Below are positions 6,391 to 36,225 of a stretch of 64,000 nt of DNA, one piece after another (the stretch's first letter is position 1; each line of letters opens with the position of its first letter). Source of the stretch: Coniochaeta sp. PMI_546 (Eukaryota > Ascomycota > Sordariomycetes > Coniochaetales > Coniochaetaceae). The notes beneath the pieces were generated by a model. That model was not told where the DNA came from. It did not search any database and saw nothing but the letters and a program-made list of their open reading frames with translations. A program made the position numbers and the translations under genes. The stretch is taken from assembly GCA_021432605.1 (NCBI GenBank), contig MU271147.1, positions 2,542,001 to 2,606,000 on the forward strand. The letters are read 5' to 3'.

Positions 6391-7779
6391 ATGCCGGATG
6401 CTGACCCTGATGCGATTGCCGCATTGGTTCTCGAGCAGTTCGACCGGCTGCCACAAAAGCGCAAGCCGGCGGTGCGTGACAATGGCATTCACGAATGGGT
6501 GCCCATGAGTGGCATCGTTGCTGAAGGTAACATGCGTACATACATACTTTGCCTGTAAATTGGACATCTTATAGTGCCGTGGTTAACATGGTCTGCTTTC
6601 ACAGCTGATGGTTTGCTCAAATGCCTGTCTCTAGCGTAGGTCACCAGACATATGCCCTTCCTCACATCCCCCCTCCCGCAAAGTCTCACACTCTGATATC
6701 GTGAGCGTAGAACCGGCATGAAATGCCTCCCAGCAAGCAAACTTCCCCTCTCAAAGGGCACAGCCCTCCATGACTGGCACGCCGAGATCCTTGCCATCCG
6801 CGCCTTCAACCACTTCCTCCTCGAAGAGTGCAAAGCCGTAGCCTCCGGCAAGCCATCATCACTCATCCGCCCTCGAACCCCCAAAGAACGCCACTCTCAT
6901 GATGCCCAGAAATGGCAAGGCCAGCCCTTCGCGTTGAAAAACGGAGTCAAGCTCCACATGTACTGCTCCGAAGCACCCTGCGGAGACGCAAGCATGGAGC
7001 TCACGATGGCAGCCCAGGACGACGCGGCGCCGTGGGAGGTACCGGCCCCTCCAGTCTCGTCGGAAGCAGCCGCCGACCCCCCACTGCTCTCGGGGAGGGC
7101 CTTCTTCTCCCAGCTGGGCACCGTCCGCCGCAAGCCGGCCAGGGGCGACGCGCCGCCCACGCTCTCCAAGTCGTGCTCGGACAAGCTGGCGCTCAAGCAG
7201 TGCGCCTCCCTCCTGTCTGGCCTCGGCTCTCTGCTGATCCACCCCGGAAACGTCTACCTTTCCAGTGTCGTCCTGCCAGACTCGCAGTTCTCGGCTGCCG
7301 GCTGTGCGCGCTCCTTCTCTGCGACGGGCCGGATGCGGAGCGTAGCTGGTCTGGAATGGTCGGGCGGGTATGCGTTTAGAGAGTTCGAGGTCCTCACGAC
7401 GAGTCTTGATTTTGCATATTCGAAGAGAGAGGTTACGAAGAGGAGTACGCGGACCAGCGCGAGTAATCTAGCGGTTGCTTGGTCGGCGGCTGGGCTGGAA
7501 GAGGGCTTGGTCGGGGGTGTGCTGCAGGGACGCAAGCAGTTTGATGGGAGGGGAGCGAGTCTCACGTCTCGGAAGAAGATGTGGGCTCTGGCACTAGATG
7601 TTGCGAGGTTACATGGGGAGGACAGTGAGGATATACAGGAACAGCTCCAAGTAGAGGTGTATAGAGATGTTAAAGAGGGGAGGTTGTTGGAGGGTAGGAG
7701 GCGGGTTAAAGACGCCGTCAGGAGTGAGGCGCTGGAGGGATGGGTGAGGAATACAGGTGATGAGAGTTTTAGGTTATGA
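6391..7779 (+). CDS. tad1: tRNA-specific adenosine deaminase 1 (Tad1/ADAT1)
   Basis: Exons 6391-6526, 6605-6635 (31 nt) and 6711-7779 give 411 residues. The enzyme deaminates A37 of tRNA-Ala to inosine. The whole chain shows the A_deamin domain. Exon 1 has VLEQFDRLPQKRKP and GIHEWVPMSGIV, and the small exon 2 carries LLKCLSLA. Exon 3 has TGMKCLP, then LHDWHAEILAIRAFN with the zinc histidine H79 and proton-shuttle E81. The second zinc ligand is in EAPCGDASMEL (C146) and the third in KSCSDKLALKQ (C211). The reading phase through the 31-nt exon is exact (2+27+2), which supports the boundaries. The C-terminal half (after about residue 240) is less conserved, as is usual. It is divergent from eL24. 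Confidence 0.93.
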
Positions 7780-8134
7780 TTTGACAGGTGATCGATATTA
7801 GGCATGTTCGTGAGTAGGTTTGAGTAGGTACCCTAGCTGGCATGATATCACCTTGGTGCCAGGAACTACGACCTGAGACACGGCATTGAGCCTGGAACGT
7901 CGCTTTTGGGCTTCCATTTGTACCCTATGGTTCCTATTCCGGGCCAAGAAAAGACTACGTGGCCATTATGCAAATTCACCACAGACGCCGCCAACCGTAC
8001 AGGGGAAAATCCACTTCTCGGGAAACTTGCGCTGACCAGAAACCGAGCTAGAGGGGATCTACCGCCGTCCTCTCCTCACCAGTTCCTACTCGGGAGGTGT
8101 TTGTTCCTGGTTGAACATTCCGAGGTCCCGAGCT
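7780..8134. other. Convergent 3' flanks of TAD1 and EGD1
   Basis: 355 bases between two stops that face each other. No coding or RNA feature was recognised. Confidence 0.55.
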
Positions 8135-8853
8135 TTACTCGACCTTGTTCTCGAAGTTCTCGCCGGCGACGAGATCGGGGATATCGTCATCGTCAGCCTC
8201 CTTCTCGCCCTCACCCTTCTGCATGTTCTGGTAGCTCTCGGCGAGCTTGCGTAGGGATGCGAGGGAGTCGGGGCCGAGCTGGTTGAGGATACCGGGGACG
8301 AGCTCAGTGAGCTCCTTGTCCTCGCCGTTGCCGTAGATGGCGAAGGTGTTGGACGGGACGGCGGCGTGGACTGTGCGGATTGGTCAGCAAGCCACAACTC
8401 TAGGAATATGCCAGATATAGAAAGTAAAGCTCACCCTTTGGTGCGGCGAAGTGGATGACGTTGCCGTCGCTCTTGAACATGTTGACCTCCTCAATGGCCT
8501 GGATGGGCTGGACGTTCAGCTTCTTCAGGGTCTGCTGGAGCTTCTTGTCGTCGCCGCTCGAGCGGGCAGGAGTCCGCTTGACCTTTCTCCGGGGGGTACC
8601 CTTGCCACTATAACACCGTCAGACAAAAGCATTCGACGGTAAAGAAATGTGAATAGGGGCATCAGATTGGCGATAGCTGGAGGGACAGGCAGCGGAGAAG
8701 TGCATTTGATGGTTGGTTGGTGGCTTCGTGTACATACCCTGGAGAACTTCATGTTAGACAACATTTCGAAAGGGCAAGGACTCGGCAATTCCGCAACTAA
8801 CCGATACGCGCCTGAGCGCCCAACTTCTTCAGTCTCTCCTGGATATCCGACAT
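8135..8853 (-). CDS. egd1: Nascent polypeptide-associated complex subunit beta (NAC-beta), with a 1-nt exon
   Basis: Minus-strand exons 8802-8853, 8738 (one base), 8435-8607 and 8135-8370 give 153 residues. NAC-beta with NAC-alpha binds the ribosome exit site and shields new chains. Seen: [18 protein letters not shown], then [13 protein letters not shown] holding the RRK ribosome-binding motif, the NAC domain from [14 protein letters not shown] through [45 protein letters not shown], and an acidic tail. The first junction cannot be joined by one canonical GT-AG intron: exon 1 ends one base into a codon and the next large exon supplies only one base before its first full codon. A single G flanked by a perfect acceptor (CTAAC...CTCCAG) and donor (GTATGT) restores the expected IGGKGT. 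See findings. Confidence 0.92.
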
Positions 8854-9654
8854 GATTATGATTTGGGGGGAAAGGGTTGGATTGTCGAGGTCGGTGAAGG
8901 AAGATCGAGGTTTGACGTTGGGAAGTTTTTGCGGGGAAAGTGTCGTTGAGGAAGTTGCTGAGGCCGAGCTGCAAATCGGGTCTGGGTCAGTGACAATTCA
9001 CCGCTTTCCCTTGGGCAAAAAAATGAAGAAGTCACCAAGATTGTCTTGACGATTCTTGAGGGCGCATATATTCGAAACTCCAGTAATTCGACTACAGGGA
9101 CACGATGCACACTTACCTCTACAAGAGTGATGCGGAATGGCCGTGGAAACCGTTCAAGATGATAGGCCGGGCGACGGTGCTGGAGCTTCGAGCCTCGTCA
9201 GATGAATTTGTGTGCGCCGGGGCCGGGCACGAATTTTCGCTTCGTGGCCCCACACTCGAAGCTCTGGTGAGCAGAGGGCACGGACCATTCTACACCTTGA
9301 AGCTGTCACCAAGGTACGCGAGAGAAGACGTGCTCGAGCAAGGTAGGTTGCGACCAGATGTTTCGTCATATTGCATATCCGTTTGTGCCATTTGGATGTT
9401 CCATGTGCCATTAAAGCAGTACAAGATTATAAGTAGAGATTGCAGCTGTGCCTTGATCTGCCATCCGCCTTGCCATGCAAATGGCCAGTCCGGCCCCATG
9501 ACCCAGATCCCTTTTCATGTCACGGTGAACCTGCTTCAAATCCACCGTTCCTAATAGATGTCGGCAATCGAGAATGAAGCCCCCTTATACATCAGGAATC
9601 ATACAGTATTGTTACAAGCTCGAGGTTGTTGCAGCAGTTTCTCACCAGCAGATT
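8854..9654. other. Intergenic between EGD1 promoter and CBP4 3' end
   Basis: Holds the EGD1 5' flank and the CBP4 3' flank. A 149-codon plus-strand frame starts with ATG at 9105 and has a possible donor near 9341, but no downstream exon or family resemblance was found, so it is not called a gene. Confidence 0.45.
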
Positions 9655-10172
9655 TCACCTGTCCGAGTTTACCGGCAACCCGGCCGCTCTCCTCATCTCC
9701 TCCTTCCTCGCCTTGACTTCCTCTGCGATCTTGATGCCCTCTTGAATCCTTGCCTCTCTTGCTTCTCGTTCTGCTTCTTGTTGTACGAACCATACTGAGG
9801 GTGTCGTGTCAGCAATGTTACGATACAAGTCCGAACGGTTCAACCCAGGAGACTCACTTGGCTTATCAGACTTTGAGTACTCCTTCAGTTTGTTGACAAA
9901 GTCGTCAAACTCCTGCTGCCGTTCAAATCTCCTCTCAAGGCTCTTCTTCTTGAGTTCCGGGCTGTACTTCTGGAAGAGTTCCTCGTCCGTTGGCGACACC
10001 CACCTCACGAAGGCCGGGCCTCCTACAATCACGGCACCTCCGCTGTCTTCTTATAAGTCTCCGTACTCAGAGGACAGGCAGTGTGTACAGCCATTTGTGC
10101 CAAGGTGATGTTTGCTTACCCGACAAGCATCTTGGTCCATAGCCACCAGTTGAAAGGCTTTTTGGCAGCCAT
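9655..10172 (-). CDS. cbp4: Cytochrome bc1 (complex III) assembly factor Cbp4
   Basis: Three minus-strand exons (10120-10172, 9858-10042, 9655-9794) give 125 residues. Cbp4 is a small inner-membrane protein that binds newly made cytochrome b with Cbp3-Cbp6 during complex III assembly. The sequence shows [15 protein letters not shown], a short hydrophobic segment (about residues 12-33, ending GGPAFVRWV), then [21 protein letters not shown] and the hallmark [20 protein letters not shown]. After it comes IWFVQQEAE and a charged coiled-coil tail ending near [11 protein letters not shown]. These match the fungal family in order and length. Introns are 77 and 63 nt, and the second junction rebuilds the conserved KPIW. 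Confidence 0.92.
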
Positions 10173-32600: not shown

Positions 32601-35516
32601 TCAAACAACCTCCCACCTAGCCAACCACCCCACACTCTCCCCAGCGTTGCGGACAACACACATCCGCCCCTCACCGGGCCTGCCCTTCTCCCTCGCCAAA
32701 TCCACCGCCTCAAGCGCCCTGCCCACGGCCAAGCTGCCGACGGCCCTGCCCTTCCCATCGGCAAGACAGAACGCCCCCGTGGTCACGAACCCCACCAGAT
32801 CCTCCTCGCCGGGACACAGCGGGTGCCGTCCGCCGATATCCGTCTTGTTGCCCTTGGTCTGGGCCGCCTCCCACGGCCACGGCAGCGGCCCCCCGGCTGG
32901 GTTGAGGATGGACTCGGCCACTAGCTTCTTCCGAGTCGCCATGTCTGCGCCGGGGGGGATGCGCCGCGGTGGAGCGGGTGGAAGGGGGATATTTCGTCCG
33001 TTCGGCATGCCGACTGCTACCTTCGCCCCGCCGAGGCGGGATAGCCATTGATCCCTCAGATCCGTCGGTAAGGCCGAAGACACTGCTTCGCCGGATTGGG
33101 AGGCCGTGGCTGGGACTTCGGCTTGTGTTGACGGTAGGACGACGACCGGGTTCTGCGTCGGCAGGCGGTAGATCCGCGCGCATGGGCTCGCGACGCCTCG
33201 GCCGACAAAGGTGAGCGTGACCGTGATGATGTGGTAAGGAGGTGATGGTGGGGGGGCTGTAGACTTCGCGTGGTTGCAAAGTGCAGAAAATGCCGCTGGG
33301 GACATGTGATGAATCTGTGAAAGAGACTTCCGCGAGATTGTCTGATGCTGCAGTCTCTCCATCTTGCTTTGGCTGCCGGCATCGGTTGCAGCATCTCGCG
33401 GCAAGTCCACCTCCATCTGGCCTGGGTCCGCTCCCGAAGCGGCAATCTTTTCTTCCGCTCCTTTCCTGACCAGAAGTTCATCCTTCGGCAGCCCAAAGAG
33501 ATGCTCAAAGTCGCAGGCAAGACCGTCTCCAACCTCGCCTTTCCTCCCCGCCCCGAGATCCAGAGTCTCCCAGGCGACTCTCTTCCCCTTCGGTCTCCGC
33601 TCCCAGTCGGCCCTTCTCTTCGCCCGCTGCTCGAGCTCCCACTCGGCGCCGGCGTCAGTGCCCAGGTAGTCGCCGGGGAACCAAGGGACGCCCTGCTCGA
33701 ACGCCACTTGTCGCAGTTCGTTCAAGCCCCCCAGCCGCGGGTTGCCTCCGCTTGACAGTGGGACTTTTACCAGATTATACCATATCGGCAGGATGCACTT
33801 CCACGGTGCCATGAGTGTCCAGGATCCCTGCACCTGGCCGCCGGACGCTGGTCGGGAGGCGAAGAGGATGATCGGGATCGGCGGGTCCTTGGCGGTGATG
33901 CCGAGTTCCATACCGGGCGTCCCGGCGCCTTTCCGCCGGTCAAGCGACTTTTGGGTGGGCAGAACACCGGCCTTGAACCTGGCGGTTCTGTCGAATAAGC
34001 CATACGGCTTGATGTTCTCGGCGACCGGCCACTCGGTCAAGGTCTCGAGAGCAGAGACGTCTTCTTCGTTGCGCGGCTGGACTCTCTTCGGTGGGTGTCG
34101 TAGACGAGGGTCCATGATAGAGAAAGCAAGAAGAGCGCCGGGAGGCAGCGATGCCGGGTTAGTCACTCCGACAAGTGATCTGAATATCCTGGCATGCTGC
34201 TCTTCGGACTCCGCCTGGCTGTAGTAGGGATGTAGTATACCGAGCAGAGCTTCAGTCGATCCAGGTCCTACCAGCTCAATGCTGCCTATTTCGAACCGGA
34301 GGTCCTCGACGTAGAGCTGCGGCGTCTGGGCCTTTACCAGAACTGTGAGCTCGTTGAAGAGCTCAAAGAAGCATGATGGATGGACTCTTATGAACACCTG
34401 CCTTTGTGCTTTCCTGGGGGGTTTTGGTTGACTTTCGATCGTAGCATCAGGTCCATTCTCAGGGTTCCAGATGATTGTGGCAGGACCGATGTCCTGTCGG
34501 ACTCTTTTCCGCTCCTTGCTCAGCATTCCAGACTGCTTCCTCAGCCCAGACCGCCACTTCGCATGCTTCTTGTCCGTGAACAGGTGCTGCGGCAGTCCCA
34601 ATGCCACTAGAACCCGTCCTATCCCTTCGCTGGAGCCGTATAGGCCAATGGTGCTCATGTAGCTCATGTCCCAGACCACGGCCCCCTTGTCGCCAGAAGC
34701 TCGATGTGTCGGCCGGTAGCACTTGTCGTTGGGTGTCAGAGGGATGGCAAACCTCCAAAGAGGGTCTTTCGGTTCGGTCATTCGTGCTCGCTTGGCGTGC
34801 CAGAGATGTGTCGGTAACCAAGTCTTGTTTATTTGCCGCTTCCTGAACTTGGATTTCGGTTTCGGCGGCTCATTGGGCACATTCCGCCGGATCTTCGGCC
34901 TCGCGGCCCTCGTATGCACGGTGGGTTTGTCCGTCACGCCATCTGCAGCAGCCACGCCATCCTGACCCTCCGCACTAGCACAAGCAGCCTGCTTTGCCCT
35001 CTTCTTCCTCTTCCTGTCGGCGAGCAGCCTCAGCCTCTTGGCCGTCTCAGCTCGTATCCTCGCCCTCGTCGTCCTCGGTCTCCGCTTCCTCGCATCCACA
35101 GTAGGCGTGTTATCCTCCGCCATCTCCCTAGCGGCCCTGGCACGCAAGCGCTTGGGAACCCTCTTGACGTTGTGGCTCGCGGTCCTCCTCCTCATGCCGC
35201 GCGGCACCTTTTGGAAGGCACGTGTGGTGGCGGCAGTCTTGCTCTTGCGCATGCTCGCCTCGAGGGCGCGGATCTCGAACTCGCGGGCTGCGAGAAAGGC
35301 CTGGAGGTCGAGCTCGCCGTCCTTGAGGGCGGCGTCTGAGGCCTGGGTGCGGATGGTGCGGGCATCCTGGAGCTTGGCGCGTTTGTGCGAACGCGTCGTG
35401 TTCTGCTGGGCGGACGGAGAGGCGTGCTTGCTCTGTGGATTGGAACTGGAGTAGCCTGACGTTGGGGTGTCTTTCCGCTTGCGAGCCTCTAAGCCCTTGG
35501 GCGGTTGTTTATTCAT
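32601..35516 (-). CDS. pop1: RNase P / RNase MRP protein subunit Pop1
   Basis: Intronless frame of 971 residues from the ATG at 35516; the frame is open slightly further upstream but without an ATG. Pop1 is the largest shared subunit of RNase P (tRNA 5' processing) and RNase MRP (pre-rRNA processing), and it clamps the catalytic RNA. The N-terminal Pop1 domain shows AAREFEIRALEASM, AFQKVPRGMRRRTASHNVKR, VPKRLRARA and the basic helices after it, then KTWLPTHLWHAKRARM and WRFAIPLTP. The POPLD part has PPIPIILFASRPA, WTLMAPWKCILPIWYNLV and GGLNELRQVAFEQGVPWFPGDY. The C-terminal glycine cleavage T-like part has HPLCPGEEDLVGFVTTG near the end. It is upstream of, and co-directional with, the RBR ligase gene. 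Confidence 0.95.
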   Translation of the reverse strand: MNKQPPKGLEARKRKDTPTSGYSSSNPQSKHASPSAQQNTTRSHKRAKLQDARTIRTQASDAALKDGELDLQAFLAAREFEIRALEASMRKSKTAATTRAFQKVPRGMRRRTASHNVKRVPKRLRARAAREMAEDNTPTVDARKRRPRTTRARIRAETAKRLRLLADRKRKKRAKQAACASAEGQDGVAAADGVTDKPTVHTRAARPKIRRNVPNEPPKPKSKFRKRQINKTWLPTHLWHAKRARMTEPKDPLWRFAIPLTPNDKCYRPTHRASGDKGAVVWDMSYMSTIGLYGSSEGIGRVLVALGLPQHLFTDKKHAKWRSGLRKQSGMLSKERKRVRQDIGPATIIWNPENGPDATIESQPKPPRKAQRQVFIRVHPSCFFELFNELTVLVKAQTPQLYVEDLRFEIGSIELVGPGSTEALLGILHPYYSQAESEEQHARIFRSLVGVTNPASLPPGALLAFSIMDPRLRHPPKRVQPRNEEDVSALETLTEWPVAENIKPYGLFDRTARFKAGVLPTQKSLDRRKGAGTPGMELGITAKDPPIPIILFASRPASGGQVQGSWTLMAPWKCILPIWYNLVKVPLSSGGNPRLGGLNELRQVAFEQGVPWFPGDYLGTDAGAEWELEQRAKRRADWERRPKGKRVAWETLDLGAGRKGEVGDGLACDFEHLFGLPKDELLVRKGAEEKIAASGADPGQMEVDLPRDAATDAGSQSKMERLQHQTISRKSLSQIHHMSPAAFSALCNHAKSTAPPPSPPYHIITVTLTFVGRGVASPCARIYRLPTQNPVVVLPSTQAEVPATASQSGEAVSSALPTDLRDQWLSRLGGAKVAVGMPNGRNIPLPPAPPRRIPPGADMATRKKLVAESILNPAGGPLPWPWEAAQTKGNKTDIGGRHPLCPGEEDLVGFVTTGAFCLADGKGRAVGSLAVGRALEAVDLAREKGRPGEGRMCVVRNAGESVGWLARWEVV

Positions 35517-36225
35517 GGCGGCATCGGCTGTCAAGGTACTGTGGACGTACGCTTGTGTGAGATGGTCCTGTGTCTGGTCTGGGTTGTGTCTGGAGTCACA
35601 ACACGTCCAGATTTTGGAATTGAATCGAGATAAGCTTTATCTTATCGGCCACTATCACAGTCTAGTGTACTGTACAACACACGTCTACCCTTAGCACTAA
35701 CGCACGCAGGATGGCGTTGTGTCATTGGCTGCTAGCGCTGTCATGAGGAGTTTCGGCTAATGTTATCAGCACTTGTATGTGTACTACCCCTACCAAAGTA
35801 CTGTACGGATCTGTAGTACAATAGACATAAGGTACACAATAAACTTACCCCTCCAAGGTCTCTAACTGCTTGTACTACGGTATGTACTCCCCATTCCTGC
35901 CAAGTGACACACGCCTCAGCCACTTGCTGCTCAGCTCGCAAAGCTGTCTTTTCTTGTCCATGATCCAACCCTGGACACTGGTCCGTCACGACAAAGTTTA
36001 CTTTTTCCCGATCCTGCAACTAGAGGTGAGTTGGAACATTGCATACATGATCGCCAGCGCACATGATTGCACGTTTTCCTTCTAGCGGAGATTGAGGAGG
36101 AACCCGGTCACTCAGGTTGTTTCGGTGGAGATGCATGACGTCTGCTTGCGGAAACTTCGTCTGAATTCTGGAATCCCCAGCTGCTGACAGCCAGGCAGAC
36201 AGCAATCAGTTTCAGGGGTCCAACA

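What the first reader, a model, noticed from the sequence alone, without database searches (positions are those of the whole stretch)
8608..8801. Apparent one-nucleotide exon (or nested twin intron) in the NAC-beta gene
Exon 1 ends one base into a codon (ATC G). The next coding exon starts T GGC AAG, one base before its first full codon, and its upstream frame closes with a stop a few bases back. No single GT-AG intron can join them in phase. In the 194-base gap there are two complete intron signal sets: GTTAGT with branch CTAAC and acceptor CTCCAG, then a lone G, then GTATGT with branch CTGAC and acceptor TATAG. Splicing both introns and keeping the single G gives IGGKGT, exactly what I expect for fungal NAC-beta. 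Either a 1-nt exon is recognised or the introns are removed one after the other, as in stwintrons.
Basis: partly seen in the sequence, partly recalled or inferred. Interest (0 to 1): 0.82.

Follow-up and report, generated by a model that had tools for sequence, protein, structure and literature searches.

The report
One-letter exon in a fungal gene
A fungal gene for a ribosome-bound helper protein appears to keep one of its protein-coding letters as an exon exactly one nucleotide long between two ordinary introns, a rare arrangement already proven in a few plant and fungal genes and easy to check in RNA data.

Summary
On the minus strand the NAC-beta gene reads exon 1 (8853-8802, ends ATC G), a 63-nt intron (8801-8739), a lone G (8738), a 130-nt intron (8737-8608), then T GGC AAG. 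Of the in-phase parses enumerated, only this one gives RIGGKGT, which aligns without a gap to BTF3 in solved structures. The Gly18 codon is thus spelled from three exons: G + G + T. The inner signal set arose in 0 of 20,000 shuffles of the gap and occurs once in 264 kb, here. The gene is otherwise intact and no second copy was found. It is not a stwintron by definition, because no splice element is interrupted. Precedents exist: Fusarium CYP621A (same AG|G|GT and split Gly codon, with reads), plant APC11 and VPS55, and Candida snoRNA hosts. Probable new member of a known kind. No RNA reads or fungal relatives were available; an assembly error of one G is the main rival.

The parts
8802..8853 (-). 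exon 1 coding part, ATG...CGT ATC G (52 nt, ends phase 1), codes [17 protein letters not shown] + first base of Gly18
8739..8801 (-). intron 1, 63 nt: GTTAGT ... CTAAC ... CTCCAG
   Evidence: pairing with the 5' end of this genome's U1 candidate 6 of 9 Watson-Crick, -4.9 kcal/mol
8738..8738 (-). one-nucleotide exon: G, second base of the Gly18 codon
   Evidence: only enumerated in-phase solution giving RIGGKGT; gapless alignment to BTF3
8608..8737 (-). intron 2, 130 nt: GTATGT ... CTGAC ... TTATAG
   Evidence: U1 pairing 7 Watson-Crick + 1 wobble of 9, -5.9 kcal/mol in the pre-mRNA context
8435..8607 (-). exon 3, 173 nt, starts T GGC AAG GGT ACC (third base of Gly18), holds the RRK motif and the start of the NAC domain
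8371..8434 (-). intron 3, ordinary 64-nt intron GTGAGC ... CTGAC ... CACAG
8135..8370 (-). exon 4 with stop codon, 236 nt

Best explanation
The gap 8801-8608 holds two complete U2-type introns separated by a true one-nucleotide exon, G at 8738. The two introns are most likely removed in two separate intron-definition splicing events, in either order. The spliceosome does not need to see the G as an exon: each intron carries its own donor, branch and acceptor. Because U1 on the second donor (AGG|GTATGT) covers the AG of the first acceptor, the two events should be sequential, not simultaneous. The mature mRNA joins ATC G + G + T GGC AAG, so the Gly18 codon GGT takes one base from each of three exons, six codons upstream of the RRK motif (residues 24-26). 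Shown here: the sequence, the phase arithmetic, the signals, the protein conservation and the chance controls. Inferred: that splicing really happens this way, and its order.
For: Of 4 single-intron and 15 two-intron in-phase solutions, only this one gives RIGGKGT. BTF3 chains in the PDB align through the junction without a gap, AQVRIGGKGTARRK, 149.1 bits. One alternative product was scored the same way, that of the intron from 8797 with an extra Tyr: it needs a gap and falls to 142.9 bits; the other three single-intron products were judged by eye (they lack RIG or more). Pairing with the 5' end of this genome's U1 candidates (ATACTTACCTTG): used donors -4.9 and -5.9; single-intron alternatives +0.2 (8797), -2.0 (8824), -1.5 (GC, 8809) kcal/mol; the AT-AC one was not scored. 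Chance: 0 of 20,000 shuffles; the strict set is counted once in 264 kb, here. Nt after the branch A are 15, 11 and 13 in the three introns; in 22 likely introns of this genome the 5-95% range is about 9-19 (which counts one more). Introns 1 and 3, 63 and 64 nt, match the short introns found (median 65 within a 45-80 nt search). No second NAC-beta locus was found, and the other exons are intact. The gap matches only itself in the genome at E 0.001, and no Rfam family matches 8000-9200 up to E 5. The same AG|G|GT split-Gly arrangement has read support in Fusarium CYP621A (PMC12940212).
Against: No RNA reads. No orthologue outside this genome could be read (searches found none), so conservation of the G exon is untested. 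The protein comparison rests on BTF3 entries alone. Both used donors are weaker than that of intron 3 (-9.2), and GTTAGT is a minor donor: in 264 kb it shows no excess before CTRAY branches (2 seen, 2.7 as the mean of six control motifs). Genome-wide GTTAGT..CTAAC..YAG has 132 matches, overlapping ones counted, against 74 with CAATC in place of CTAAC, but the tool's own backward-pattern controls are 196 and 113; the CTAAC to CAATC ratio is 1.78 forward and 0.58 backward, so the excess is indirect. A competing AAG lies 8 nt upstream of the end of the CTCCAG acceptor. A 194-nt single intron would not be odd in itself: NAC-alpha has an ordinary 180-nt one.
Confidence: 0.88

Rival explanations
1. 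Assembly error: one G was lost from a G run at the exon 1 boundary (or before TGGC), and the real gene has one intron of about 194 nt, GTTAGT...TATAG, in phase 2. The inner signals are then accidental.
For: One extra G at the first boundary would give ATC GG|GTTAGT and IGGKGT with a single intron (arithmetic). Introns of that size exist here: the NAC-alpha intron is 180 nt.
Against: The inner branch-acceptor-G-donor set then has to be coincidence: 0 of 20,000 shuffles, and no second occurrence in 264 kb on both strands. The NAC-alpha intron of similar length holds no such set, even with the loose pattern. No reads were available to test it directly.
Confidence: 0.06
2. A single intron with the weak donor GTTGCG (8797-8608, 190 nt), giving ...RIGYGKGT... 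with one inserted Tyr.
For: It is in phase and free of stops.
Against: The donor pairs 2 Watson-Crick + 1 wobble of 9 with U1, +0.2 kcal/mol. It inserts a residue into a stretch that is gapless to BTF3, and the score falls from 149.1 to 142.9 bits. It leaves the stronger GTTAGT donor 4 nt upstream unused.
Confidence: 0.02
3. A stwintron: an internal intron interrupts the donor or acceptor of an external intron and has to leave first.
For: The arrangement is close to a [D1,2] stwintron: two adjoining short introns, and GGT at the 5' boundary. [quoted passage not shown]
Against: After intron 1 leaves, the next bases are GGTATGT, with donor GTATGT already whole in the DNA; a [D1,2] would need CAG|TATGT. 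U1 pairing of donor 2 hardly changes when intron 1 is gone (-5.9 to -5.8), so no obligatory order follows.
Confidence: 0.02
4. Other: two introns around a longer micro-exon (13, 37 or 52 nt with the 8801 donor), a different first exon, or a frameshift during translation.
For: One search lists in-phase two-intron solutions with longer middle exons.
Against: All of those listed change the RIGGKGT motif. The acceptor TATAG is the only AG between the upstream in-frame stop and TGGCAAG.
Confidence: 0.02

Closest known systems
One-nucleotide exon of Fusarium CYP621A P450 genes (PMC12940212, parts 1 and 2 of 3 of the text read)
   Same: Fungal protein-coding gene; AG|G|GT; phase-1 exon, single G, phase-2 exon; the G is the central base of a glycine codon in a conserved motif; two short introns.
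   Different: There it is reported in 20 orthologues (24 genes) with 18 SRA reads from two species, in a rarely expressed P450; intronic region 139 nt in F. graminearum. Here it is a ribosome-associated chaperone gene, one copy found, one genome, no reads; gap 194 nt.
One-nucleotide exons of plant APC11 (PMC4674806, part 1 of 3 read) and VPS55 (PMC8831610, passages read)
   Same: Single-nucleotide exon needed for the reading frame, missed by annotation.
   Different: Plants; the APC11 exon is A, in a 422-nt gap; proven by cDNA and reporter tests and present in most land plants.
Single-base exons between snoRNA introns in Candida parapsilosis and relatives (PMC5033589, passages read)
   Same: Fungal nuclear introns separated by one base.
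   Different: Non-coding host transcript; introns hold snoRNAs. No Rfam family matches the present introns.
Stwintrons (spliceosomal twin introns) of Pezizomycotina (PMC6616335 introduction, PMC8469720 and PMC9024468 passages, PMC5639578 abstract and outline)
   Same: Two splicing reactions remove one compound intervening sequence; intron definition.
   Different: No splice element is split here and the order is not forced.

Membership tests
One-nucleotide micro-exon | A single base flanked by AG on its 5' side and GT on its 3' side, each side belonging to a complete intron | tested here: met
   CTCCAG|G|GTATGT, both introns with CTRAY branches 15 and 11 nt from the 3' end
One-nucleotide micro-exon | The base is needed to keep the conserved reading frame | tested here: met
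   Skipping it gives a 44-residue truncated product; keeping it gives 153 aa with IGGKGT; gapless to BTF3
One-nucleotide micro-exon | Transcript evidence for inclusion | not testable with these tools
   No RNA reads are held
One-nucleotide micro-exon | Conservation of the exon in orthologues | not testable with these tools
   No fungal relatives are held; scans of viral and prokaryote contigs found no relative
Stwintron | Internal intron interrupts donor, branch or acceptor of the external intron | tested here: not met
   All six elements are contiguous; definition
Stwintron | [D1,2] form: complex starts with GGU and the rest of the donor, URWGY, follows the internal acceptor | tested here: not met
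   GGT is present at the 5' boundary, but GGTATGT, not TATGT, follows CAG; definition
Stwintron | External intron leaves only after the internal one | not testable with these tools
   Needs intermediates; U1 pairing of donor 2 is -5.9 before and -5.8 after intron 1 leaves
Recursive splicing at a zero-length exon (AG|GT) | Acceptor and donor abut directly | tested here: not met
   One G lies between AG and GT
NAC-beta (BTF3/EGD1) | NAC domain and overall similarity to BTF3 | tested here: met
   PF01849 full length, 85.4 bits; BTF3 E 9.8e-43 over residues 5-149
NAC-beta (BTF3/EGD1) | N-terminal ribosome-binding motif, RRK-(X)2-KK in yeast (PMC4664479, passages) | tested here: inconclusive
   RRK is present at residues 24-26; the KK half reads RT here (RRKVKRT), so the yeast motif is not matched letter for letter

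The most novel reading that the evidence does not exclude
The one-nucleotide exon in NAC-beta is a stable feature shared by a group of filamentous fungi. One-base exons that supply the middle base of a glycine codon (phase 1, AG|G|GT, phase 2) would then recur in unrelated fungal genes through the same route: loss of one boundary base rescued by a cryptic AGGGT, as the CYP621A authors propose, or gain of an intron one base from an existing one. Skipping the G gives an early stop without the RRK motif, so inclusion could also tune NAC levels.
Probability: 0.2. Interest if true: 0.6.

Novelty: new member of a known kind. Interest (0 to 1): 0.43.

Why it matters
[quoted passage not shown] In the papers I read, nuclear protein-coding cases are plant APC11 and VPS55 and Fusarium CYP621A (found through; further searches). 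The listings also show mitochondrial one-base exons, in placozoan cox1 and in Ophiostoma, and several plant papers that I did not open. A case in NAC-beta, a gene for a conserved ribosome-associated chaperone, would let the order of splicing and the skipping rate be measured from ordinary RNA-seq if the gene is well expressed (expected, not tested), whereas CYP621A is rarely expressed. The codon of one glycine is spelled from three exons in both fungal protein-coding cases, which hints at a common route of origin.

Tried and rejected
Stwintron reading: rejected on definition. Single-intron readings: rejected on donor strength and protein conservation. snoRNA or other structured RNA in the longer intron: no Rfam match up to E 5 in 8000-9200. 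Repeated intron element (introner): the 194-nt gap matches only itself in the genome at E 0.001. Second gene copy or pseudogene: no other NAC-beta locus found. Relatives in viral and prokaryote contigs: none confirmed (26 and 99 pattern matches, none a relative).

Training a splice-site model on 264 kb was weak. The first attempts were dominated by false introns. Under strict limits 22 likely introns came out of 43 candidates; in the matching test with donors GT[AGT]NG, the true branch motif gave 26 introns of 45-80 nt and five control motifs gave 3 to 7, so perhaps a fifth of the set is false. I use it only as ranges. The script mislocated the last intron; the enumeration does not use that value, and one search gives the right one. 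In one search the U1 5' end was typed from recall and differs at one base from this genome's U1 candidates; one search replaces those numbers.

A genome-wide count of other AG|N|GT twin introns could not be made; only the 264 kb already held was scanned. Papers: the listings (20 of 83 shown; none; 6) show no paper on fungal NAC-beta gene structure. The paper on a single-nucleotide intron shift is not held.

Full report
What is there. The window lies at C5:2,542,001-2,606,000 of a 33.5-Mb genome in 24 contigs. Neighbouring genes such as CBP4 and the intron style suggest a filamentous ascomycete; that taxon is inference from recall, not a result. On the minus strand at 8853-8135 sits a NAC-beta (BTF3/EGD1) gene. 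The spliced model has exon 1 8853-8802, intron 1 8801-8739 (63 nt), G at 8738, intron 2 8737-8608 (130 nt), exon 3 8607-8435, intron 3 8434-8371 (64 nt) and exon 4 8370-8135. It gives 153 residues with a full-length PF01849 domain (85.4 bits). A search with the whole protein found three exon matches, all in this locus. The two other PF01849 matches in the genome lie at C5 about 184 kb, in a gene that I name NAC-alpha from recall of its sequence.

Is the one-base exon forced? I enumerated every single GT-AG, GC-AG and AT-AC intron of at least 30 nt, and every pair of GT-AG introns of at least 40 nt, that joins the ATG to GGC AAG in phase without a stop. But only 8801-8739 + G + 8737-8608 gives RIGGKGT. 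In the PDB, BTF3 chains align to that product without a gap over AQVRIGGKGTARRK (149.1 bits; the call does not name the species). One alternative was scored in the same way: the 190-nt intron from GTTGCG inserts a Tyr and gives 142.9 bits. The protein comparison rests on BTF3 entries only; no fungal NAC-beta was returned at E 0.001.

Are the signals real? Each intron has a donor, a CTRAY branch 11-15 nt from its 3' end and a YAG. The genome has three U1-like matches, all below Rfam's cut-off; the two read both start ATACTTACCTTG. Paired with that 5' end, the two used donors give -4.9 and -5.9 kcal/mol. The GT and GC single-intron alternatives give +0.2, -2.0 and -1.5, and the ordinary intron 3 gives -9.2. 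The inner set CTRAY-N4..20-YAG-G-GTRNGT appeared in 0 of 20,000 shuffles of the gap and once in 264 kb on both strands, at the locus itself. The similar-sized 180-nt intron of NAC-alpha in the same genome is an ordinary single intron without such a set. That supports the reading, and it also shows that length alone is no argument.

Weak points. Both donors are weaker than that of intron 3. GTTAGT is a minor donor: in 264 kb it shows no excess before CTRAY (2 against 2.7). Genome-wide, GTTAGT..CTAAC..YAG gives 132 matches and GTTAGT..CAATC..YAG gives 74, overlapping matches counted. The tool's backward controls give 196 and 113, more than the forward counts. Read backwards, the first pattern holds CAATC and the second CTAAC, so CTAAC exceeds CAATC 1.78-fold in intron orientation and is 0.58-fold in the backward one. 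This points to real GTTAGT introns but is indirect. A lost G at a boundary (assembly error) would also explain the phase and can be excluded only with reads. Neither RNA nor orthologues could be examined.

How it most likely works. In ascomycetes most introns are short and splice sites are paired across the intron (intron definition; PMC6616335 introduction). Each of the two introns is complete, so no recognition of a one-base exon is needed. The U1 footprint of donor 2 (AGG|GTATGT) includes the AG of acceptor 1, so both sites should not be engaged at once and removal should be stepwise (inference). Pairing of donor 2 with U1 is about the same before (-5.9) and after (-5.8) intron 1 leaves, so I expect both orders. 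The products of failure are all truncated early: skipping G, 44 residues; intron 2 kept, 42; intron 1 kept, 18. None contains the RRK motif, which in yeast is part of the ribosome-binding motif RRK-(X)2-KK (PMC4664479, passages); here the stretch reads RRKVKRT. Whether this is used to set NAC levels is speculation.

Comparison. [quoted passage not shown] APC11 (PMC4674806, part 1 of 3) and VPS55 (PMC8831610, passages) are plant cases, so CYP621A is not the second; single-base exons between snoRNA introns were described in Candida (PMC5033589, passages). Mitochondrial one-base exons appear in the listing and were not read. The present case therefore belongs to a known kind. It is not a stwintron, because no splice element is interrupted (definition). 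I found no report of it in NAC-beta in the listings, in an open-licence library only.

Verdict.

Noticed in passing
L002 (C5 about 184,300), minus strand of the locus: NAC-alpha (named from recall of its sequence), the partner subunit, lies on the same contig with an ordinary 180-nt intron whose donor is GTCAGT, in phase 0 between PKN and ILFVIN.
   Followed up: yes
L024 1501-1649 and L025 1501-1654: Three U1 snRNA-like matches, all below Rfam's cut-off, on three contigs; the two read start ATACTTACCTTG, with U where the U1 sequence I recall has G at position 11, which would favour A or G at donor position -3.
   Followed up: partly
window 8747 (minus strand): An AAG ending only 7 nt after the branch A of intron 1 could compete with CTCCAG; its use would add 8 nt and break the frame.
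   Followed up: partly
window 6697-7779, 9655-10050, 32601-35636: Neighbours include an adenosine-deaminase (editase) domain gene, CBP4 and POP1 of RNase P/MRP.
   Followed up: no
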